Shown here: piece after piece, positions 167 through 10,722 of the stretch
Numbering within the stretch: position 1 is the first letter of the stretch
Layout: each line of letters opens with the position of its first letter
Origin: Pseudomonadota bacterium
GTDB lineage: Bacteria; Pseudomonadota; Gammaproteobacteria; SZUA-229
Length of the DNA: 10,722 nucleotides
NCBI GenBank assembly: GCA_015222915.1
Contig: JADFWE010000264.1
Coordinates: 1 to 10,722 of the forward strand
Direction: 5' to 3'
Program-made: the position numbers and the translations under genes
The notes under the pieces: model-generated
Seen by the model: only the letters and a program-made list of their open reading frames with translations
Told to the model about the DNA's origin: nothing
Database searches by the model: none

Positions 167-520
167 CTAAGCTTGTTTAAGTTTATCGCCTGACCAGGCG
201 CGGACCAGTGCCCACAGGGCAAAAACGATAAAAACAGTATGCACCAGAGTGAAATAGGTGATCACATAGACCCAGGTCCAGGGTGAATCGAAACCACCGA
301 GAAGGATCATCAGTGTACTGACCAGAAAGAGTACAGCGGCAGCGATTATATTGATCTGTATGCCCAGCAGTGCATGGTAGCGGTCGATGTCTCCTGGTCG
401 GGTCTTCCGGTAGATCAGCAGCAGGGCAATAAAGCCGATAACTGGCAGGATCGTCAGGTTGAGCAGAGAGGTCAGAGCCGCATCTGATGCGCGTTTTAGC
501 TGGGTTTCATCGGTTTTCAT
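167..520 (-). CDS. Small 3-TM membrane protein, unknown function
   Basis: This 117-aa protein starts at an ATG (520) preceded by a purine-rich GATGAGAGA stretch that can serve as ribosome binding site. It has three hydrophobic segments at about residues 18-37, 52-75 and 82-108, with a short charged N-terminus (MKTDETQLKR) and a basic C-terminal tail. The loop RPGDIDRYHA between TM1 and TM2, followed by a helix with LLGIQINI, faintly recalls Tic20/DUF4870-type small membrane proteins, but I do not recognise a family with confidence. It lies downstream of norCB on the same strand but beyond an intrinsic terminator, so it is probably a separate transcription unit or reached only by read-through. 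A role in NO reductase assembly is possible from position only. No metal-binding or redox motif is visible. Confidence 0.75.
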   Translation of the reverse strand: MKTDETQLKRASDAALTSLLNLTILPVIGFIALLLIYRKTRPGDIDRYHALLGIQINIIAAAVLFLVSTLMILLGGFDSPWTWVYVITYFTLVHTVFIVFALWALVRAWSGDKLKQA

Positions 521-670: not shown

Positions 671-2068
<1,398 letters not shown>

Positions 2069-2506
2069 TTAACCTTGAATATTGGGTGGCCAGTCTCTGG
2101 CGATTTTAATGCCGTCAGCATATTTTAGGAATTGCGCGATCTCTTCCAGTTCCTGATCAGTAAAATTAAACTGAGGCATACTGCGACGACCGGGAATACC
2201 ATCGACGGGACGGCTCTTGATGAAACCCTTGATGGCTTCTGTGCTCTCGCCGAATCGGGTGTAAACATTGCCAAGTTCGGGGGCAAAATAAGCACCTTCA
2301 CCTAACAGGGTATGGCAACCAATGCAGTCATTGATTTCCCATAGACGTTTACCTGCAGCAACCTCTTCGGTCAGATTCTCTCTATTGTCAGTTTTAGGCA
2401 GACTCTCAACCGTATCGACGGTTAGTCCAATAAGTACCAGGAAGAAAAACACCGATCCCCCGTAGTAAATATTTCGTGCCATGCCCTTGGTAAAGGTTTC
2501 TCTCAT
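2069..2506 (-). CDS. norC: Nitric oxide reductase cytochrome c subunit NorC
   Basis: NorC is the membrane-anchored monoheme cytochrome c that passes electrons from soluble cytochromes to NorB. The open frame can begin at a GTG (2518), but I prefer the ATG at 2506. It gives MRETFTKGMARNIYYGG, the typical NorC N-terminus, a 145-aa protein of usual length, and a GTGAGA stretch upstream. One TM anchor (GGSVFFFLVLIGL) is followed by the periplasmic heme domain with CIGCH (residues 61-65 from this start) and a likely distal Met in RRSMPQF (Met110). It is first gene of norCB, preceded by a consensus FNR/DNR promoter, so low oxygen and NO probably induce it. The stop codon lies 12 nt before norB. All features expected of a functional subunit are present. 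Confidence 0.97.
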   Translation of the reverse strand: MRETFTKGMARNIYYGGSVFFFLVLIGLTVDTVESLPKTDNRENLTEEVAAGKRLWEINDCIGCHTLLGEGAYFAPELGNVYTRFGESTEAIKGFIKSRPVDGIPGRRSMPQFNFTDQELEEIAQFLKYADGIKIARDWPPNIQG

Positions 2507-2540
2507 AGCGGTTCTCACTTGATTTGAGTTAATGGTTCAC

Positions 2541-2778: not shown

Positions 2779-4020
2779 TCAGGCTGTTCGCCTTCCAGGC
2801 GCGGTGTTTCTTTTCCAGGGCGTCAGTTGCAGACGGTCTTCCTCGTCGCTGACGCCGATCTCACTGTTCTCAAGATAACAGCCGGGGTCTTCAGCCCAGA
2901 AGTTGCCGCTTAACGACCAGGCTCGGGTACGCGAGTTGCCGCCGCAGATATCGATGTACTTGCACTGTGCGCAACGACCTTCGACCGGACGTGATTTCAG
3001 TTTCAGGCCGGCCATCAGCGGGTCGGATGTGTCCATCCATATATCTGAAAATTTAGCCTGTTTTACATTGCCGATGGTGTAGTCCCACCACATGGTATCG
3101 GGGTGCACGTTACCGATATTGTCGATATTGGAGATGTTGACGCCGGAAGAGTTACCGCCCCAGTTATTCAGCATGACCTCCAGACGTTCAGCATGCTGTG
3201 GCAGGTGTTCACGCGCCCATAGCAGCAGATATACGCCATCGGCATCGTTGTTACCGGTAACGAACTCGCGTCGTTTACCATCAAGTGCATCCTGCCAGCA
3301 GGTCTCGAATAACAGGTCCATGGCTTCGCGGGTCATCTTGTGGTGCAGGTCATCGCCACGGTTTTTATTGCCGCGACCGGCATAGTTGAGGTGTGACAGG
3401 TAGAACTTGTCGACACCCTCATCATCCATCAGTTGTAGCAGGGCGGGCAGGTCCTGTTTGTTGTCCTGGGTCAGGGTAAAGCGTAGCCCGACTTTGATGC
3501 CGGCATCCCTGCACAGGCGTATGCCGCGCAATGCCTCATCGTAGGATCCCTGCTTGCGGCGGAATCTATCGTGGGTCTCGCGCATACCATCGATGCTGAT
3601 ACCGACGTAGTTGTAGCCGACATCGACGATTTTCTGGATGTTGTCTTCGGTGATCAGTGTGCCGTTGGAAGACAGCCCGACATAGAAGCCCATGTCTTTA
3701 GCGTGATGTGATATCTCGAATATATCCGGGCGCATCAGAGGTTCACCACCGGAGAGGATCAGTACCGGTACGCCAAAATCTTTCAGGTCATCCATCACTT
3801 CAAACACTTTCTCTGTGTTCAGTTCGCCAGGGAAGTCTTTATCTGCCGAGGTGGCGTAACAATGTTTGCAGGTGAGGTTGCAGCGTCGGATCAGGTTCCA
3901 GATAACCACCGGGCCGGATATCTTTTTTGCGGTCGCCGGTGTGGATGCGCCGACAGGGCGGGATGGCCTGTGGTTAGCATCGGTCTGCAAAGCATGCATG
4001 TACTGGCTTAATCGAAACAT
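2779..4020 (-). CDS. nirJ: Heme d1 biosynthesis radical SAM protein NirJ
   Basis: NirJ is the cytoplasmic radical SAM enzyme that acts on didecarboxysiroheme (12,18-didecarboxysiroheme) to replace two propionate side chains by the oxo groups of heme d1. The 413-aa protein has the cluster motif CNLTCKHCY with Cys47, Cys51 and Cys54, the SAM-binding GGEP at 91-94, and a C-terminal SPASM-like cysteine set (Cys350, Cys353, Cys359, Cys381) for a second iron-sulfur cluster. Length is slightly above the usual 380-400 because of a charged C-terminal tail. The ATG at 4020 has a good AAGGA six bases upstream. It is last gene of the nir operon, 31 nt after nirGH. The heme-synthesis paralogues AhbC/AhbD and other SPASM maturases share the fold, but the nirF and nirD/L/G/H neighbours fix the assignment. 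Confidence 0.95.
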   Translation of the reverse strand: MFRLSQYMHALQTDANHRPSRPVGASTPATAKKISGPVVIWNLIRRCNLTCKHCYATSADKDFPGELNTEKVFEVMDDLKDFGVPVLILSGGEPLMRPDIFEISHHAKDMGFYVGLSSNGTLITEDNIQKIVDVGYNYVGISIDGMRETHDRFRRKQGSYDEALRGIRLCRDAGIKVGLRFTLTQDNKQDLPALLQLMDDEGVDKFYLSHLNYAGRGNKNRGDDLHHKMTREAMDLLFETCWQDALDGKRREFVTGNNDADGVYLLLWAREHLPQHAERLEVMLNNWGGNSSGVNISNIDNIGNVHPDTMWWDYTIGNVKQAKFSDIWMDTSDPLMAGLKLKSRPVEGRCAQCKYIDICGGNSRTRAWSLSGNFWAEDPGCYLENSEIGVSDEEDRLQLTPWKRNTAPGRRTA

Positions 4021-4051: not shown

Positions 4052-5110
4052 TCAGGCTGCGAGACGAAGGCCGGTTTTCTTCAGGATGGCTGAACTGTAT
4101 AGCGTATCATGTGCTTTACAGTTATCGCCTAATAATTGTTCGATTTTTTTCGCTTTAGCATTTACCTCGTCCTTGCCCGACCCGTGTACCATGGCAAACA
4201 TATTGTATCGCCACATGGGCAGGTGCCGGGGGCGTTGATAACAGTGGCTGACGAAATCCAGCTGGCCGATAAGGTTTCCCAGCTCTGTCACCCTGTCGTC
4301 GGATACATCCCAAACGGTCATACCGTTAGCCGTCAGACCGAGTTTGTAGTGATTGGGTACGGCGCCTATGCGGCGGATGATGCCACAGGCTAACATCCGT
4401 TTCAGACGTTGGATAACATCATCTTCGGTCAGGCCGATATTGTGCGCGATGCCCAGGTAAGGCTTGCTTTCGACAGGCAGACCCGACTGCGTGATCCTGA
4501 GTATTTTTCGATCGCTATCATCGAGCTGGTAAGCTCCCGCCTCGACATCATCGATAGCGGTATTTTCAGGCACAGGCATGGTCGTGACTTTGTTGTTTTC
4601 GTCGAGGTGCAGCCAGAGGCCGATATAAAATTCCTGCTGCTTGGGAAAGTTGTAGACGCGCAGGCTGGTCGTCTTCTCGATCGAAGATATCACCTTAAGC
4701 AGTTCGGCCTGTGCCTCGGTCGCTATCACGAACCACATATTCAGCTCGTGCTCACGGCGGTAGTTATGCGCGACCTCAGGGTAAGTGTTGACCAGCGCAG
4801 TCACGATCTCATACCGGTTTTCGGGGACGCTTATCGCTGCCAGCGTCAAACCGCCACCGAGGCGGGCAGCATCATAGAGCGGTCCGAAGCGGGTGAGTGT
4901 TTTTTGTTCTTTTAAATGCTGTACCGCTTTTATCAGTTCGTCCTCGGTACAGGAAAGTTCTTTTGCAATGGTATCAAAAGGCCGTTCGACCAGAGGGAAA
5001 TTACCCTGAAAGTTATTGATGAAATCCCGTTCCAGCTTCGATAAGACTATATCTTTCGTGTCTGCAGCCTTTTGGCTAGTATCTGCCGAGTTAGTGGTCG
5101 AAGGGCTCAT
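4052..5110 (-). CDS. nirGH: Fused siroheme decarboxylase, NirG-NirH type
   Basis: This 352-aa protein contains two AsnC/Lrp-like halves in tandem, each with a winged-helix part and an effector-like part. The N-terminal half (about 25-170) carries the A-type motif AHNYRREHELNMWF (114-127). The C-terminal half (about 196-352) carries the B-type signature GLTANGMTVWDVSDDR and the run 289-310 ending MFAMVHG. NirD/L/G/H proteins are not regulators. They remove acetate carboxyl groups from siroheme to give didecarboxysiroheme. The position between nirL and nirJ matches nirG-nirH of Pseudomonas aeruginosa, so I read this as a G-H fusion joined by a linker at about 171-195. Fused two-domain forms (NirDL) are known elsewhere. 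The ATG at 5110 has only a weak GAGAA upstream, and the preceding gap holds tandem repeats. Confidence 0.9.
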   Translation of the reverse strand: MSPSTTNSADTSQKAADTKDIVLSKLERDFINNFQGNFPLVERPFDTIAKELSCTEDELIKAVQHLKEQKTLTRFGPLYDAARLGGGLTLAAISVPENRYEIVTALVNTYPEVAHNYRREHELNMWFVIATEAQAELLKVISSIEKTTSLRVYNFPKQQEFYIGLWLHLDENNKVTTMPVPENTAIDDVEAGAYQLDDSDRKILRITQSGLPVESKPYLGIAHNIGLTEDDVIQRLKRMLACGIIRRIGAVPNHYKLGLTANGMTVWDVSDDRVTELGNLIGQLDFVSHCYQRPRHLPMWRYNMFAMVHGSGKDEVNAKAKKIEQLLGDNCKAHDTLYSSAILKKTGLRLAA

Positions 5111-5135
5111 TAATTTTTCTCGGTGAGTGCTGTTA

Positions 5136-5233
5136 CTAAGGTTCAGGTATTAATATTCAGGTATTAAGGTTCAGATATTAAGGTTCAGATATTAAGGTTC
5201 AGATATTTAAGACTCAGGCATTGAGGTTCAGGG
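5136..5233. repeat. 14-bp tandem repeat array, seven copies
   Basis: Copies start at 5136, 5150, 5164, 5178, 5192, 5206 and 5221. Consensus on the plus strand is TTAAGGTTCAGATA. Copies 3-5 are identical, copy 6 is 15 nt, and the outer copies are degenerate. The array fills most of the 117-nt gap between nirL and nirGH, and its last copy covers the nirL stop codon. On the coding (minus) strand each full unit carries CTGAACCTTAA, so stops are frequent and it is not translated. The three identical inner copies point to recent slippage expansion. Confidence 0.9.
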
Positions 5234-5875
5234 TTTGTCGGCGTTTTTTATCAGTCGCAGTTTGGCTGCGGCCCTGGTTTTTGGTTTCATGGTTTTTGGT
5301 CTTGTCTCTGTATTGCCCTGCGCATAACTTGCACCGCGTTGTTTGAATCGACGGGTGCTGAACAGGATGGTATGTTCGATATCCTGCAGTCCGCATTCGT
5401 TCACTATATCTTCAACTTTTTTTGCGACTTCATCGCGGTCACTGCCGTGCACCATGGTGAACAGGTTGTATGACCAGTCGGGGAGACGGCGGGGACGACG
5501 GTAACTCAGCGTTACGCAGGAATATTTTCCGATGCACATGCCAAGTTCTTCGACCCTGTCATCGGGCACGTCCCAGACCACCATGCCGTTGGCGGTATAG
5601 CCAAGTTCTTTGTGGCGAACCACCACGCCATAACGCTTGATGGCGCCTTTATCGGTCAGCTGCTGCAGCCGTGCGATAACATCCTGCTCGCTCGTGCCCA
5701 GCTGCCTGGCTATCTCGGCATAGGGACGACTGGTCACCGGCAGACCGTGTTCCACCGCTTTGATCAATGCCCGGTCTTCGAGTGTGATCTGCAATACCTG
5801 TTTGTTCAAGTCAGTAGCGTTCATGGCTGGATCCTGTGAGGTCTTATCCTGTGGGTTCATATCTTGACCCTTCAT
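5228..5875 (-). CDS. nirL: Siroheme decarboxylase subunit, NirL type
   Basis: This is a B-type NirD/L/G/H protein that works with an A-type partner to decarboxylate siroheme during heme d1 synthesis. Of 215 aa, about 31-82 form the AsnC-like winged helix. GYTANGMVVWDVPDDR (92-107), the SYRRPRR...NLFTMVHG run (124-144) and LFSTRRFKQRGASY (171-184) are the family signatures. The ATG at 5875 overlaps the nirD stop as ATGA. However, the ATG at 5860 (residue 6) has a much better ribosome site, AAGGG seven bases upstream, and may be the true start. The last 30 residues are an unusual Lys/Arg-rich tail absent from the fused paralogue, ending inside a tandem repeat. By operon order (D then L) it pairs with the gene just upstream. 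Confidence 0.9.
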   Translation of the reverse strand: MKGQDMNPQDKTSQDPAMNATDLNKQVLQITLEDRALIKAVEHGLPVTSRPYAEIARQLGTSEQDVIARLQQLTDKGAIKRYGVVVRHKELGYTANGMVVWDVPDDRVEELGMCIGKYSCVTLSYRRPRRLPDWSYNLFTMVHGSDRDEVAKKVEDIVNECGLQDIEHTILFSTRRFKQRGASYAQGNTETRPKTMKPKTRAAAKLRLIKNADKP

Positions 5876-6351
5876 TTCGTTGCACTCGCTTTTAACTGGA
5901 AGCCCAGGTCGATGAAATAATCATCCAGCATCGGCAGTGACATCAACGGGTATTCGGTATGTTGTTCGATCTCATGTAATACGATGTCCAGGTGTTCCGC
6001 GCTGGAAGCGGTGACCACGAACCACAGGTTGTATTCGTGTTCGCGTTCGTAGTTGTGGTTCACTTCAGGGAAGGCGCTGATGATGCGTGCTACACACTCC
6101 AGGTCCTGTTTGGGGATCGCCATCGCGGCCAGTGTGCTGACCCCGATTTTGTTAGGCCGGAAGACAGGGCCGACACGGCTGATCACGCCACGGTCCTGCA
6201 GTGACTGTATGGTCTCTAATACTTTTTCTTCGCTAACGTCCAGTTGTTTTGCCATGTCGGCATAAGGTGTTGCAGACAAAGACATGTCGCGCTGATAATC
6301 GTTCAGCAAATGCTGTTCGAGTGGTGAAAAATCATTGATTGAATCTGTCAT
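5872..6351 (-). CDS. nirD: Siroheme decarboxylase subunit, NirD type
   Basis: This 159-aa A-type member of the AsnC-like siroheme decarboxylase family forms, with NirL, an enzyme that converts siroheme to didecarboxysiroheme. Residues 10-60 are a winged helix-turn-helix (DMAKQLDVSEEKVLETIQSL). GPVFRPNKIGVSTLAAMAIP (61-80) and NHNYEREHEYNLWF (98-111) are the hallmark stretches, with the histidines expected at the active site. It matches the N-terminal half of NirGH in layout, so the two arose by duplication. The ATG at 6351 follows ACAGGTCTT as ribosome site, 37 nt after nirF. The 4-base overlap with nirL suggests coupled translation and a 1:1 complex. General annotation pipelines often mislabel such genes as Lrp/AsnC regulators. 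Here the context rules that out. Confidence 0.92.
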   Translation of the reverse strand: MTDSINDFSPLEQHLLNDYQRDMSLSATPYADMAKQLDVSEEKVLETIQSLQDRGVISRVGPVFRPNKIGVSTLAAMAIPKQDLECVARIISAFPEVNHNYEREHEYNLWFVVTASSAEHLDIVLHEIEQHTEYPLMSLPMLDDYFIDLGFQLKASATK

Positions 6352-6388: not shown

Positions 6389-7576
6389 CTACAGGCCGAT
6401 ACGGTGCGCGCGAGAAGTAAAAAATATACCGCTGGGTTTTTTAGCGTCAAACGTTACCAGCTGTTGCAGTGTTTCAGTATCAAAGACGGCTATACGGTCT
6501 TCGTCCCGTATCGATGCCCACACCTGTCCGCCCCGTGGTTCGAATTCCATGTGTAAAACGCCTTTACCGGGCGTCAATGTTTTTATGATCTTCAGTGACT
6601 GGGTGTCGATGACCTGCAGGGTATCGTTGTTAGGAACAGCAAAGTTGACCCAGATGTTGCGGCCGTCGGGACGTGCCATAACAAAGACCGGCTGGCCATG
6701 TACTTTGATGCGTCCGGCCTCGCTCCAGTCCAGTGTGTTGATTACCAGTACTTCGTGATGGCCGACGGCAGGGACGAAAGCAAAGTTACCGGCAATGGCC
6801 CAGCCTTCGAGGTGCGGCATCTTGTAGACCGGAAGTTTCTTCTCACCTTTACCGTAACCGTCGAGGATGCGCCTGGTTCCAGCATCGAGATTCCACAGGT
6901 CCAGCAACACCATGCCGTCTTCGCCGAACAGGCCGGCGATGTAATAACGACCGTCCGGTGTGATCAGTGCATCGTAGGGATTTTTGCCGATGTCTTTAAA
7001 TTTGGTGATCACGGGTTTGTTGACGTCGGTCATGTCAGCGACCCATATCTCGCCGGCATCCCACAGGCTGAATACAAATTTCTGTCCCGGTGCGTCGACC
7101 AGGCCGATGACTTTTGATTGCAGTCCTTGATCCCCGTAGGTAGCAGGGATGTTGGCAACCAGCTCAAGTGTGTCTGCATCAAATATCTTTACGCCGCCGG
7201 GTTTGTAGTTAGACACTGCCACCAGGCGTCCATCCTGCGAGATAGCACCACCGATGCTGTTGCCGGACTGCATGATGCGTTTGACGATCTTTTTATCGAT
7301 GATATCGATCTTGGTCAGGCCGCCATCGCGGCCGAAGATATAGGCAAACTGTTCATCACGGGAATATACGGCAGAGGCGTGCGAAAGATCACCCAGTCCC
7401 TCGATCCGGCCCAGGCTGGAATTGGTGCTGGTCTCAACCACCTGAACACTGCCGTCAGCACGTTCGATGACGATGCCGAGGTCGCCGGTTCCGCGAGCGA
7501 ATACGTTCGCTGCCAGTAGCAGGCAGGTACCGAGCAGGGCTGAACGCAAGGCAGAGATAGATAGTGGACGGATCAC
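6389..7576 (-). CDS. nirF: Heme d1 biosynthesis protein NirF
   Basis: NirF is a periplasmic beta-propeller protein required late in heme d1 maturation. It resembles the d1 domain of nitrite reductase NirS and of NirN. The 395-aa product begins with a signal sequence (hydrophobic residues 12-26, likely cleavage after ANVFA at 27). Repeated propeller-blade strands follow, such as GGVKIFDADTLELV, NPYDALITPDGRYYIAG and NDTLQVIDTQSLKIIKTL. No c-type heme motif is present, which separates it from NirN and NirS. There is no convincing lipobox: the only Cys in the leader (18) is followed by more hydrophobic residues. So it seems soluble rather than lipid-anchored as reported for the Pseudomonas protein. 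The start is GTG (7576), overlapping the nirC stop as GTGA. Confidence 0.95.
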   Translation of the reverse strand: MIRPLSISALRSALLGTCLLLAANVFARGTGDLGIVIERADGSVQVVETSTNSSLGRIEGLGDLSHASAVYSRDEQFAYIFGRDGGLTKIDIIDKKIVKRIMQSGNSIGGAISQDGRLVAVSNYKPGGVKIFDADTLELVANIPATYGDQGLQSKVIGLVDAPGQKFVFSLWDAGEIWVADMTDVNKPVITKFKDIGKNPYDALITPDGRYYIAGLFGEDGMVLLDLWNLDAGTRRILDGYGKGEKKLPVYKMPHLEGWAIAGNFAFVPAVGHHEVLVINTLDWSEAGRIKVHGQPVFVMARPDGRNIWVNFAVPNNDTLQVIDTQSLKIIKTLTPGKGVLHMEFEPRGGQVWASIRDEDRIAVFDTETLQQLVTFDAKKPSGIFFTSRAHRIGL

Positions 7577-7953
7577 TTACCTGTTCCACTCAAGTCTTGT
7601 GATTTTTTGTTCAGCACCAGTTCAGTCTCCATCACCTTGCCGTCTTGTAGCTGCTCGGTAATCCATTCCGCATCATCGCGGCTGAGCATGGTGTTCCATG
7701 GCGGCATGGCGGTGTTCTCACGGCCGAGCAGGATGGTGTTCACCAGATAATCCCTGGGTTTGGCGGCAAGGGTCTCTGGCAGCAGTGCAGGCCCGAGGCC
7801 TCCTTTTAAAGTCATGCCGTGGCAGGAACCGCAATCATGTTTGATGAAGTACAGCAGTTCGTTCTGGCGGGCTGCGTCCACCCCGGCAACAGCGTGCAGC
7901 GAGGTCATCAGTCCGGCGCCGAGCAGGCTAGCGATGTAGAGCATTTTTTTCAT
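7573..7953 (-). CDS. nirC: Periplasmic cytochrome c55X, NirC
   Basis: NirC is a small monoheme c-type cytochrome of nir clusters, thought to supply or accept electrons in the last steps of heme d1 formation or for NirS. I start it at the ATG 7953 (126 aa), which has AGGA six bases upstream. A TTG further out would lengthen the leader without need. Residues 1-23 are a Sec signal peptide (MKKMLYIASLLGAG ... HAVA). Heme binding is at CGSCH (41-45), followed by GMTLKGGLGPALLP, and the likely axial Met is Met83 in NTAMPPW. The C-terminal 20 residues are polar. It overlaps nirE by 26 nt and nirF by 4 nt, so the three are translated as a chain. Confidence 0.92.
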   Translation of the reverse strand: MKKMLYIASLLGAGLMTSLHAVAGVDAARQNELLYFIKHDCGSCHGMTLKGGLGPALLPETLAAKPRDYLVNTILLGRENTAMPPWNTMLSRDDAEWITEQLQDGKVMETELVLNKKSQDLSGTGK

Positions 7954-8749
7954 GTACAGTCCTGTTCTCGTCAAACGCTTGCAAGTGTTTTATTTCCAGT
8001 GATTCCTGAAACCAGTCAAGTTCATCTGCCAGTGAGACGACCTCACCTATGATGATGATCACCGGGGCTTTCATCCGCTGTTGATGTATCGCATCGTTCA
8101 GCTGCTCCAGCGTCGTTAAGACACGTTGCTGTGATTCGGTTGTGCCGTTCCGGACCGCTGCCGCCGGTGTCGTGGCAGGCAGTCCTGCATCGATCAGAGA
8201 GTGTATCACCAGTGGAAGGTTGGACAGGCCCATGTAGATAACCAGCGTTGAATCAGGGTCGGCGATGGATTTCCAGTTGAGATTCAGCGGCTCGTTATCA
8301 TTAAAGTGCCCGGTGATGAACTGTACTCTCCGGCTCATGCCTCGATGTGTCAGCGGGATGCCGCTATAGGAACTGCAACCTGATGCAGCGGTTATACCGG
8401 GAACGACTTCGAAGTCGATATGGTGTTCTCTAAGTGCCAGAACCTCTTCGCCGCCACGACCGAACATGTAAGGGTCACCGCCTTTCAGGCGTACAATCCT
8501 GCGGCCGGCTTTGGCCAGATTGATGACGATCTCGTTGATCTGCTCCTGCGGTACGCAGTGTTTGCCGACTTCCTTGCCGACGGAGATGCGGCTGACGCCG
8601 GTTGGGATCAGGTCGAGGATATCGTCAGATACCAGGCGGTCATAGACCACGACGTCTGCCTGCTGCAGCAAACGTACCGCTTTAACGGTCATGAGTTCTG
8701 CATCGCCGGGTCCTGCGCCGACCAGTGATACAAAGCCTTGGTTATCCAT
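7928..8749 (-). CDS. nirE: Uroporphyrinogen-III C-methyltransferase NirE
   Basis: NirE uses two S-adenosylmethionine to methylate uroporphyrinogen III at C2 and C7, giving precorrin-2, the branch point toward siroheme and heme d1. Of 273 aa, VGAGPGD (10-16), RLKGGDPYMFGRGGEE (87-102), VVPGITAASG (115-124), GIPLTHR and the YMGLSNL loop are the classical SUMT/CobA motifs. The CysG oxidase/ferrochelatase module is absent, so another enzyme must oxidise precorrin-2 and insert iron. A TTG one codon earlier is possible, but the ATG at 8749 with GAGG upstream is preferred. It is first gene of the nir operon. The context favours NirE over the cobalamin CobA. About 35 residues follow the methyltransferase core (after IIIIGEVV), and their role is unknown. 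Confidence 0.93.
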   Translation of the reverse strand: MDNQGFVSLVGAGPGDAELMTVKAVRLLQQADVVVYDRLVSDDILDLIPTGVSRISVGKEVGKHCVPQEQINEIVINLAKAGRRIVRLKGGDPYMFGRGGEEVLALREHHIDFEVVPGITAASGCSSYSGIPLTHRGMSRRVQFITGHFNDNEPLNLNWKSIADPDSTLVIYMGLSNLPLVIHSLIDAGLPATTPAAAVRNGTTESQQRVLTTLEQLNDAIHQQRMKAPVIIIIGEVVSLADELDWFQESLEIKHLQAFDENRTVHEKNALHR

Positions 8750-8853
8750 CAATATCTGCCTCGTTTATGTTGTCCCGTGACTCGAGCAGAGGGAAGAGAT
8801 TCTCTCGATGCTCCGCTGACGATTCTTGTTGCTGTTAAAAGTCTCAGGTGAGG

Positions 8854-8898
8854 ATAATATTGTATTGCCCGGGCTTATATGTCATTGATTTAGGTCAA
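8854..8898 (-). promoter_or_regulatory. FNR/DNR-type promoter of the nir operon
   Basis: TTGATTTAGGTCAA (8885-8898) fits the FNR/DNR consensus TTGAT-N4-RTCAA. On the minus strand TATTAT (8859-8854, five of six to TATAAT) is a good -10. It lies two to three bases further away than the ideal spacing for a box at -41.5, so the start site near 8847-8850 is approximate. The leader to nirE would be about 100 nt. The box could also influence the divergent gene, though it is far from that start. Confidence 0.75.
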
Positions 8899-8978: not shown

Positions 8979-9021
8979 TTGACACAGATCATTTTGATTT
9001 ATCTGCGAATATGTCTACAAT
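8979..9021 (+). promoter_or_regulatory. FNR/DNR-like promoter of the hemerythrin gene
   Basis: TTGACACAGATCAT (8979-8992) matches eight of ten half-site bases of TTGAT-N4-ATCAA. TACAAT (9016-9021, five of six to TATAAT) follows at the spacing expected for a class II site (about 30 bases from box centre to -10), as at norC. TTGATT (8994-8999) placed 16 bp before TACAAT could also serve as a plain -35. Predicted start is near 9028. Confidence 0.6.
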
Positions 9022-9110
9022 GTGCCAGTCGCTGTCTCGTCGCTGCATTTTCGTCATATCGCCGCCTGGTTCATCGACTCCAATCAATTGTTTTATAAGG
9101 AACAACCCGT

Positions 9111-9695
9111 ATGAAATCGAATGTCTGCCGGAATAAAAGAATGTGTATGTTTGGCGTGTCGCTGCTCATACTGTCGCTTGTCATCGCTGTGATATTAGGT
9201 CTTCTGGTTGGCCCGACCAATCCGGTTACCTGGGTACTGATCGCATGTCTGGTCGTTATTCCATTCGTCCATAAAAAACTGGCGGAGACTCAATTCGTCG
9301 AGTGGAAGGATGATTACAGTGTCGGTATCGATTCTATCGACCAGCAGCATAAGAAATTACTGAACCTGATCAATCAATTACAGACAGCGGTCGATTATTC
9401 TACAGGTGAACAGTTCGAACGCGATGCGCTTGATGAGCTGGTAGATTACACGAAAACCCATTTCACTTATGAAGAAGGCTTAATGCGTGATAATGATTAC
9501 CCTGGTTTTGTCGAGCACAAGCTTCAGCATGAAAAAATGTTCGACAAGGTTAGCGAAGTGCTGGCTAAGTATGAGGAAGACAGCGATACCGCGATGAGCA
9601 ATGCGGCTGATTACCTCAAGGACTGGCTGATCAAACATATCAACGGTACGGACAAGGAATACAGCAGTTACCTGATCGGGAAGGGTGTGAAATAG
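9111..9695 (+). CDS. Membrane-anchored bacteriohemerythrin
   Basis: This 194-aa protein has two closely spaced TM segments (about 12-34 and 38-53) followed by a complete hemerythrin domain. All seven di-iron ligands are in place: His80 (DQQH), His117 and Glu121 (HFTYE), His136 and His140 (HKLQH), and His176 and Asp181 (HINGTD). Single-domain hemerythrins bind O2 reversibly, and some bind NO. In methanotrophs they supply O2 to membrane oxygenase. Here the hairpin anchor should leave the N- and C-termini on the same side, probably cytoplasmic given the basic N-terminus. The ATG has AAGGA nine bases upstream. Its FNR/DNR-like promoter and divergent place beside nir suggest a role in O2 scavenging or NO binding during denitrification. 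That role is inferred. No output domain (kinase, GGDEF, MCP) is attached. Confidence 0.93.
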   Translation: MKSNVCRNKRMCMFGVSLLILSLVIAVILGLLVGPTNPVTWVLIACLVVIPFVHKKLAETQFVEWKDDYSVGIDSIDQQHKKLLNLINQLQTAVDYSTGEQFERDALDELVDYTKTHFTYEEGLMRDNDYPGFVEHKLQHEKMFDKVSEVLAKYEEDSDTAMSNAADYLKDWLIKHINGTDKEYSSYLIGKGVK

Positions 9696-9716
9696 GTCTG
9701 CTTCGTTGTCTAGTAA

Positions 9717-10091
9717 ATGAATACGCTTTACCTGTTGATCGTGCTCACCCAGAATGGTGCGGGTGACGTCAATGCATCATTCGTTAACACTGAATCATTA
9801 CAACAGTGTCAGCAGAAAGCACAGATGGTTTCGGCTATATTCATCACAGCAGATATCCCGGTGTTAACGAGCCGCTGTATGAAAAGTGAGTTGCAGTTCT
9901 CCGAGTTCGGGCATGCATCTGCCGCCAGCCGGATCCGGAACTTTTATCTGGTAGACACAGACGCAGAAAAGATAGAGATTACTTCCGTTGCAGACTGGAA
10001 GACCTGTGTCGAGTTGAAACGAAGAGCATCGTCCAGGAAGGGTGTCTATTGTGCGAGTTCAGTGCAGTCGATTCTAGATAGCCTCAAATGA
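9717..10091 (+). CDS. Hypothetical protein with four cysteines
   Basis: I do not recognise this 124-aa protein. Its first 11 residues (MNTLYLLIVLT) are hydrophobic but short and are followed by QNGAGDV without a clear cleavage site, so export is uncertain. Four cysteines at 31, 54, 97 and 112 are spaced like two disulfide pairs, which would fit a periplasmic location. The body is mixed alpha/beta with a tail rich in Lys/Arg (about 96-109). The ATG is only 21 nt after the hemerythrin stop with no good ribosome site, suggesting coupling or re-initiation. Codon use resembles the neighbours and the frame is open through 124 codons, so it is probably a real gene. Function unknown. Confidence 0.72.
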   Translation: MNTLYLLIVLTQNGAGDVNASFVNTESLQQCQQKAQMVSAIFITADIPVLTSRCMKSELQFSEFGHASAASRIRNFYLVDTDAEKIEITSVADWKTCVELKRRASSRKGVYCASSVQSILDSLK

Positions 10092-10129
10092 TACAGTCCC
10101 TGGCATAAAAAACGACCGGAGCTTTATTG

Positions 10130-10549
10130 ATGAAAAGTATAAAAGCCATTCTTGCCGGCACTGTGTTTATCGTTATCGTGATCCTGTTCTTGCAGCTGTT
10201 GTATATCTTTGTCGCTGTCGCCTACAACGCAATGGCAGATGACTTTCCTGTTCTGAATGATATCGCGCCTTCTTTCCGCTATCTCATCGGCATCCCTGTT
10301 TTTATATCCGTCATGTTTATCGGCGGATATATCACGGCAAGTATCGCTGGCGAAGAAACCACATTGAATGTCGTGCTGCATTGTCTTGTGGTCGGTCTTA
10401 TCACCGCTATAGGCATGATCTATCCCACTCTGGGAAATGCAGATATCACGGTCACCGGCATGGTTATTGTCGTACTGGCGCTGGGCGCAACCGTCGGGGG
10501 CGGGCTTTACCGGCAGAAGAGTATCAAGGCGGAAGTCAAAAAACTTTAA
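10130..10549 (+). CDS. Hypothetical 4-TM membrane protein
   Basis: This 139-aa integral membrane protein has four hydrophobic helices at about 7-30, 49-71, 80-99 and 108-127, small-residue motifs (GGY at 65-67, GATVGGG at 119-125) and a basic C-terminus (RQKSIKAEVKKL). The ATG at 10130 is preferred to the TTG one codon earlier because GGAG lies eight bases upstream. The general layout recalls small four-helix proteins such as the TIGR04086 type, but I cannot assign a family. It follows the four-cysteine protein by 38 nt and may be cotranscribed with the hemerythrin. No cofactor ligands are conserved in an obvious way. The single His (84) and Cys (85) lie inside helix 3. Function unknown. Confidence 0.78.
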   Translation: MKSIKAILAGTVFIVIVILFLQLLYIFVAVAYNAMADDFPVLNDIAPSFRYLIGIPVFISVMFIGGYITASIAGEETTLNVVLHCLVVGLITAIGMIYPTLGNADITVTGMVIVVLALGATVGGGLYRQKSIKAEVKKL

Positions 10550-10555
10550 AAGCTA

Positions 10556-10657
10556 TTCACCACAGAGGCACAGAGTTTGTTTTTGTTAATAGCGCCTACG
10601 GCGCGATTGACAAAAATAAATGATTTTCCTCTGTGCTCTCTGTGCCTCTGTGGTGAA
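10556..10657. repeat. 102-bp palindromic repeat element
   Basis: The ends are a perfect 20-bp inverted repeat, TTCACCACAGAGGCACAGAG (10556-10575) and its complement (10638-10657). Inside, a second pair of arms (about 10576-10596 and 10600-10620, 18 of 21 matching) closes on GCGCC-TAC-GGCGC (10592-10604). The right side has 17 extra bases, which duplicate CTCTGTG units. The element starts 6 nt after the last stop codon and could also end transcription. The arm sequence resembles strings I recall as dispersed repeats in environmental bacteria. No transposase is present. Confidence 0.85.
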
Positions 10658-10722
10658 ATGTTTTTGACCTTCCGCTAACGTTAATCCAACCTGCAATTTA
10701 ATAAAATAAAAAAAGGTTTTTC
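10658..10722. other. A/T-rich right end, nothing assigned
   Basis: No gene is visible. An AACCT (about 10689) and AGGTT (about 10714) pair flanks an A-rich stretch and might be part of a terminator of a gene beyond the window, but the stem is too short to support a call. Confidence 0.3.

What the first reader, a model, noticed from the sequence alone, without database searches (positions are those of the whole stretch)
8979..10549. Hemerythrin plus two unknown genes as a candidate new denitrification accessory unit
A TM-anchored hemerythrin with all iron ligands is followed closely (21 and 38 nt) by a four-cysteine protein and a 4-TM protein that I cannot assign. It sits divergent from the heme d1 operon and has an FNR/DNR-like promoter. 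This suggests a membrane module handling O2 or NO. The spacing, motifs and box are seen; the joint function is inferred.
Basis: partly seen in the sequence, partly recalled or inferred. Interest (0 to 1): 0.72.

Follow-up and report, generated by a model that had tools for sequence, protein, structure and literature searches.

The report
Membrane hemerythrin tied to heme-d1 denitrification
A membrane-anchored iron protein of the oxygen-binding hemerythrin type, found beside the genes for making bacterial nitrite reductase, recurs next to such genes in several bacterial families, while the two small unknown genes that follow it here are only local companions.

Summary
In detail: a two-helix membrane-anchored bacteriohemerythrin (HEM, 9111-9695), a four-cysteine protein (CYS4, 9717-10091) and a 4-TM protein (TM4, 10130-10549) run in tandem, divergent from nirE-C-F-DLGH-J and norCB, behind an FNR/DNR-like box (8979-8992). 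Its meaning divides. HEM is a recurrent companion of cd1-type denitrification: in a class-wide sample full-length HEM is in 16 of 369 genomes, all 16 with NirJ (67 of 369 overall); 15 of its 18 loci have nir/nor genes on the fetched stretch, in different arrangements; the box precedes it in 28 of 31 loci against 62 of 803 other ORFs. It follows Nir (NirJ in 25 of 32) more than Nor (cNorB in 14 of 32). The three-gene unit is not general. CYS4 follows HEM in 18 of 20 loci, but 7 other named loci lack HEM and nir, and one genome keeps CYS4 beside a decayed HEM. TM4 joins only in the window's genus; 21 of its 35 loci show no nir link. Best mechanism (inferred): an FNR/DNR-induced O2- (perhaps NO-) binding buffer on the cytoplasmic membrane face that shields heme d1 assembly. 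New variant of a known kind.

The parts
9111..9695 (+). HEM: bacteriohemerythrin with an N-terminal transmembrane hairpin; HHE domain about residues 62-190, predicted cytosolic
9717..10091 (+). CYS4: small protein with four invariant Cys (C31, C54, C97, C112), invariant H66 and W94; no known family, no TM segment
10130..10549 (+). TM4: membrane protein with about four TM segments, no known family; local companion only
8979..8992 (+). FNR/DNR-like box TTGACACAGATCAT upstream of HEM
   Evidence: consensus TTGATnnnnATCAA quoted in PMC1274295 (passage)
8885..8898 (-). second FNR/DNR-like box TTGATTTAGGTCAA, on the nirE side of the divergent promoter region (near-palindromic; strand nominal)
7928..8752 (-). 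nirE (uroporphyrinogen-III C-methyltransferase), first gene of the divergent heme d1 operon
7573..7974 (-). c-type cytochrome in nirC position (name from position; models say only cytochrome c)
6389..7576 (-). nirF (cytochrome d1 domain protein; name from domain and position)
4052..6351 (-). nirDLGH (siroheme decarboxylase-type subunits; the 352-aa ORF is a fusion of two)
   Evidence: the third ORF, 5872-6351, is below that model's cut-off
2779..4020 (-). nirJ, radical SAM heme d1 enzyme
   Evidence: TIGR04051, 636.6 bits, cut-off 515.45
671..2518 (-). norB and norC (match solved cNOR 3o0r chains B and C)

Best explanation
HEM is a denitrification-dedicated branch of bacteriohemerythrins: a diiron O2-binding-type domain tethered by an N-terminal transmembrane hairpin to the cytoplasmic face of the inner membrane, switched on by FNR/DNR-type regulators together with the nir genes. 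Shown: domain, ligands, two hydrophobic segments, conserved box, recurrent linkage and co-occurrence with heme d1 / cd1 nitrite reductase genes. Inferred: topology, regulation, and that it binds O2 reversibly (and possibly NO) near the membrane as cells switch between O2 and nitrite respiration, so shielding the O2- and NO-sensitive cytoplasmic heme d1 assembly (radical SAM NirJ, siroheme decarboxylases) or holding O2 for high-affinity oxidases. CYS4 is an optional helper in one family; TM4 was added in one genus.
For: Full-length HEM in 16 of 369 class genomes, 16 of 16 with NirJ against 67 of 369 overall (Fisher 2.8e-13, not corrected for kinship), from 11 families. Nir/nor genes on the fetched stretch at 15 of 18 loci there and at 29 of 32 in the relatives sample (the samples share 7 genomes). 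Arrangement differs: divergent from nirE, beside nirS, beside nirN, upstream of norCB. Box within 300 nt in 28 of 31 loci, 22 within 150 nt, against 62 of 803 other ORFs; of 12 loci examined later 8 have it, and both unlinked second copies (L182, L183) lack it. Ligands as in solved DcrH hemerythrin. NirJ in 25 of 32 HEM genomes, 17 of 46 with only other hemerythrin matches, 13 of 115 with none. cNorB in only 14 of 32 HEM genomes; of the other 18, one has a quinol-NOR-like 789-aa ORF at E 1.8e-31 and the rest nothing better than E 1.5e-6, although this query finds solved quinol NORs at about 1e-21 to 1e-46. Basic residues at both ends of the hairpin favour a cytosolic domain (by eye). Five Crp-family proteins in the window's genome, at least two with FNR-like N-terminal cysteines by eye.
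Against: HEM is dispensable: 30 of 55 NirJ genomes in the relatives sample have no full-length match, among them G012 and G017 of the same genus at 97-98% completeness. HEM is enriched with cNorB too (14 of 32 against 27 of 161). G028 has a 41% HEM without NirJ or cNorB, beside a NapC/NirT-type cytochrome; G027 has HEM upstream of norCB and no NirJ hit (74% complete). G178 has NirJ and a perfect box but no nir gene on the fetched stretch around HEM. HEM has decayed in G044 although nir is present. L174 and L177 are linked but show no box. No O2, NO, expression or localisation data. Genomes are related, so P values are too small.
Confidence: 0.47

Rival explanations
1. HEM is mainly an NO buffer or NO-binding protector against the NO made by NirS, like NorA/YtfE in role but not in family.
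For: Tied to nir genomes, many without a recognisable NorB, where NO would need other handling; NorA of Ralstonia is a hemerythrin-domain NO-handling protein of denitrifiers (PMC9045102 passages); in G023, G027 and G175 HEM is next to norC.
Against: Complete O2-carrier ligand set and bacteriohemerythrin models, no RIC/ScdA match; cNorB-positive NirJ-negative genomes rarely have HEM (1 of 8 in the relatives sample against 25 of 55 NirJ genomes; small numbers).
Confidence: 0.28
2. HEM-CYS4(-TM4) is a signalling or redox relay: HEM senses O2/NO and CYS4's cysteines pass the state on.
For: Intact HEM directly upstream of CYS4 in 18 of 20 loci, gaps 10-122 nt in 17 of these 18; four invariant Cys plus H66; some HEM or CYS4 loci hold FMN/4Fe-4S proteins like NosR.
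Against: CYS4 without HEM in 7 of 25 named loci and intact beside a decayed HEM; HEM without CYS4 in 14 of the 32 HEM genomes of the relatives sample.
Confidence: 0.12
3. Generic microaerobic O2 delivery to oxidases (like Pseudomonas Mhr); neighbourhood with nir reflects only a shared FNR regulon.
For: P. aeruginosa Mhr is Anr-regulated, binds O2 and is epistatic to cbb3 oxidases (PMC12403760 passages).
Against: 16 of 16 NirJ co-occurrence and repeated physical linkage to nir. Linkage to oxidase genes was not searched for, so this comparison is incomplete.
Confidence: 0.13

Closest known systems
Bacteriohemerythrin (NCBIfam NF033749; Methylococcus Bhr, DcrH-Hr)
   Same: HHE domain, 5 His + Glu + Asp ligands, curated models passed
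   Different: N-terminal TM hairpin and linkage to the heme d1/cd1 denitrification genes
Pseudomonas aeruginosa Mhr
   Same: Hemerythrin under an FNR-family regulator (passages)
   Different: Membrane localisation there by a C-terminal tail (seen only as a title in a reference list; that paper is not held); here an N-terminal hairpin and nir linkage
NorA / YtfE / DnrN (RIC proteins)
   Same: Hemerythrin-type diiron proteins linked to denitrification or nitrosative stress (passages)
   Different: HEM matches bacteriohemerythrin and no RIC/ScdA model, and follows nir more than nor

Membership tests
Bacteriohemerythrin | passes curated family model | tested here: met
   NF033749 136.9 bits, cut-off 84
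Bacteriohemerythrin | seven diiron ligands | tested here: met
   invariant in 31 sequences and aligned to DcrH-Hr
Bacteriohemerythrin | reversible O2 binding | not testable with these tools
   needs spectroscopy
RIC (YtfE/NorA/DnrN) | RIC/ScdA domain or model match | tested here: not met
   none among Pfam or NCBIfam hits at E up to 1
FNR/DNR regulon member | TTGAY-N4-RTCA box upstream, conserved | tested here: met
   28 of 31 HEM loci against 62 of 803 other ORFs
FNR/DNR regulon member | regulator-dependent expression | not testable with these tools
   needs expression data
   all three together in 9 loci, all of genus g1; TM4 otherwise elsewhere
Nir-associated gene | recurrent linkage to nir across families | tested here: met
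   HEM 15 of 18 class loci linked to nir or nor, several arrangements

The most novel reading that the evidence does not exclude
Membrane-hairpin hemerythrin is an unrecognised accessory of cd1-type denitrification in Gammaproteobacteria: a dedicated O2/NO shield for cytoplasmic heme d1 assembly, recruited to the nir or nor locus several times independently, with CYS4 as a lineage-specific partner.
Probability: 0.35. Interest if true: 0.7.

Novelty: new variant of a known kind. Interest (0 to 1): 0.52.

Why it matters
How heme d1 assembly, with a radical SAM enzyme, copes with O2 and NO while cells switch respiration is, as far as I know, open (recalled). A hemerythrin found only in NirJ genomes in the class sample (16 of 16), over 11 families, gives a concrete, testable candidate and a possible marker gene. 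It also shows that the two small genes should not be annotated as denitrification genes in general.

Tried and rejected
Rejected: TM4 as a fixed module member. Rejected: HEM as a RIC/NorA-type protein. Rejected: HEM as primarily NOR-linked. Rejected: CYS4 as strictly HEM-dependent. Led nowhere: Pfam scans of the 20 CYS4 and 31 TM4 members gave only sub-threshold hits, the commonest for TM4 being DUF3792 in 12 of 31 at best E 0.0089; no solved-structure relatives of CYS4 or TM4 at E up to 1; plasmid search with HEM matched 57 records, 1 of them over at least 80% of the query and that without the first 36 residues; six literature searches listed no paper whose title, abstract start or passages seen report a nir-linked or TM-hairpin hemerythrin (open-licence papers only, few opened). 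The motif was loosened from the strict consensus after seeing that result.

Full report
The window is the whole of a 10.7-kb contig of a 2.1-Mb metagenome-assembled genome, 84% complete. The named records closest by CYS4 are uncultured Gammaproteobacteria, mostly labelled only that. The minus strand holds norCB (solved cNOR chains match at E 6.5e-229 and 1.7e-45) and the heme d1 genes nirJ, nirDLGH, nirF, nirC and nirE; the plus strand holds HEM, CYS4 and TM4. NirS is not on this contig; another contig of the genome starts inside nirT and continues with a cupredoxin and nirN, which in relatives follow nirS. The nirS and nirN queries match solved cd1 nitrite reductases and 6rtd (that 6rtd is NirN is recalled).

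What HEM is. It passes curated hemerythrin and bacteriohemerythrin models and the seven diiron ligands are invariant in 31 aligned sequences, in line with solved DcrH hemerythrin. Two hydrophobic segments separated by a short uncharged loop, with basic residues at both outer ends, predict a hairpin with the HHE domain in the cytosol (inferred). The 12 further homologues examined later have the same two hydrophobic stretches (the second weaker in L178, L182 and L183) and the same ligands, except that L178 is cut by its contig end before the last two.

How HEM is distributed. In 193 relatives I count as full-length HEM the matches at E up to 1e-38: 32 genomes (the search itself used 1e-10 and matched 78 genomes, the other 46 only more weakly, including a contig-edge fragment in G038 that may be a 33rd). 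NirJ at E up to 1e-100 is in 55 of 193: 25 of the 32 with HEM, 17 of the 46, 13 of the remaining 115. Of the seven HEM genomes without a NirJ hit, five carry other nir genes or a NirJ piece at contig ends (G001, G002, G022, G050, G052), G027 has HEM just upstream of norCB, and G028 has neither. In a class-wide draw that shares 7 of its 16 HEM genomes with the first sample, 16 of 369 genomes have HEM and 16 of 16 have NirJ, against 67 of 369. Fisher gives 2.8e-13, too small because genomes are related; 11 families are involved. Nir or nor genes lie on the fetched stretch at 29 of 32 loci of the first sample (misses L102, L112, L113) and 15 of 18 of the second (misses L102, L182, L183; the last two are second copies in genomes that also have a linked one) (the window). 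Stretches ran to 20 kb and were shorter where contigs end. The places differ: divergent from nirE, next to nirS, next to nirN, upstream of or divergent from norC. Varying places in different families argue for a functional link rather than frozen gene order.

Nir or Nor. cNorB at E up to 1e-100 is in 41 of 193, 14 of the 32 HEM genomes against 27 of the other 161, so HEM is enriched with both, more strongly with NirJ (25 of 32 against 30 of 161). A laxer search of the 18 HEM genomes without cNorB (with G000 as positive control and G044 added) found one quinol-NOR-like 789-aa ORF (G034, 29%, E 1.8e-31); the other 17 gave nothing better than E 1.5e-6 at 24-29% identity, in genomes up to 100% complete. 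The query does reach solved quinol NORs, at about 1e-21 to 1e-46 in the library. HEM is absent from 30 of 55 NirJ genomes, so it is an accessory, not an essential part.

Regulation. TTGAY-N4-RTCAN lies within 300 nt upstream of HEM in 28 of 31 loci and within 150 nt in 22, against 62 of 803 other ORFs of the fetched loci. These ORFs come from a mechanical caller and include nir genes and some false ORFs. The strict consensus scan agrees: mean best match 8.65 of 10 against 7.15 in shuffles, none of 200 shuffle sets reaching it; 29 of 31 have 8 or more, shuffles 15 at most; related sequences are not independent. In the window's genus all 9 loci have two boxes, one at 200-298 nt before HEM, towards nirE, and one at 115-148 nt. 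Boxes of this form are described in PMC1274295 (passage). Of 12 loci examined later 8 have the box; the two unlinked copies and L174 and L177 do not.

CYS4. In 193 relatives it is in 20 genomes. Intact HEM lies directly upstream on the same strand in 18 of these 20 loci, with gaps of 10 to 122 nt in 17 and 334 nt in one; 19 of the 20 show at least one nir gene, the exception being G120 on a 3.2-kb contig. The scan uses two short peptide patterns and misses divergent members. In the last three CYS4 is preceded by a TonB-dependent receptor gene (in L160 with a further ORF between) and followed by a CbiX-domain gene and an FMN/4Fe-4S gene only weakly like NosR. In G044 most of HEM is missing or no longer alignable and what remains has an in-frame stop (seen by eye), while CYS4 is intact, dN/dS about 0.3 against G048, one pair only. 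CYS4 therefore probably has a role beyond HEM. It has no family, TM segment or solved relative.

TM4. It is in 35 of 193 relatives: next to CYS4 in 9, all genus g1; directly after nirF in 4 (24-36% identity) and 1.3 kb after nirF with one ORF between in G023; in the other 21 no nir or nor gene appears on the fetched stretch of 3.4 to 20 kb. Two genomes of the same genus without full-length HEM (G003, G010) keep TM4 elsewhere. The nirF-linked copies leave a weak chance of a second link to nir.

Mechanism. The full O2-carrier ligand set, membrane tether, predicted cytosolic side, FNR/DNR-type box and tie to NirJ more than to Nor fit best with an O2 (perhaps NO) buffer that protects cytoplasmic heme d1 assembly as respiration switches. 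The steps from ligand set to O2 binding, and from linkage to protection of heme d1 assembly, are inferred. NO buffering is the nearest rival.

Prior knowledge. Anr-regulated Mhr (PMC12403760, passages), NorA (PMC9045102, passages), Methylomonas bacteriohemerythrins (PMC12607906, passages), anaerobically induced Magnetospirillum hemerythrins (PMC9549626, passages) and an FNR-linked hemerythrin in Accumulibacter (PMC6446978, one passage) are related. None of the passages seen reports a nir-linked TM-hairpin hemerythrin, and six searches listed none.

Noticed in passing
window 10550-10660: Imperfect inverted repeat (TTCACCACAGAGGCACAGAG ... CTCTGTGCCTCTGTGGTGA, by eye) just after TM4, like a dispersed intergenic repeat or terminator.
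   Followed up: no
window 4052-5110: A 352-aa ORF fuses both siroheme decarboxylase-type subunits (AhbA and AhbB models); relatives have them fused or separate.
   Followed up: no
window 167-520: 117-aa protein downstream of norB, no Pfam or NCBIfam family; distant homologues recur near norCB (L096, L101, L103, L109).
   Followed up: partly
L084:10942-12879: A 645-aa protein with two cytochrome c stretches and a cytochrome d1 domain lies beside HEM in several genomes, besides NirS and NirN.
   Followed up: no
L159, L160, L161: TonB-dependent receptor, CYS4 homologue, CbiX-domain protein and FMN/4Fe-4S protein in a row.
   Followed up: partly
L091:601-1400: HEM has decayed in G044 while CYS4 beside it is intact.
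   Followed up: yes
G005, G019, G026, G040: Genomes 98-100% complete with nir genes and HEM but no NorB match better than E 1e-6: how they dispose of NO is unclear.
   Followed up: partly
L083, L106-L109, L111: A second hemerythrin-domain gene, a DUF2249 gene and a larger protein without a Pfam family form a recurring trio near HEM or norCB.
   Followed up: partly
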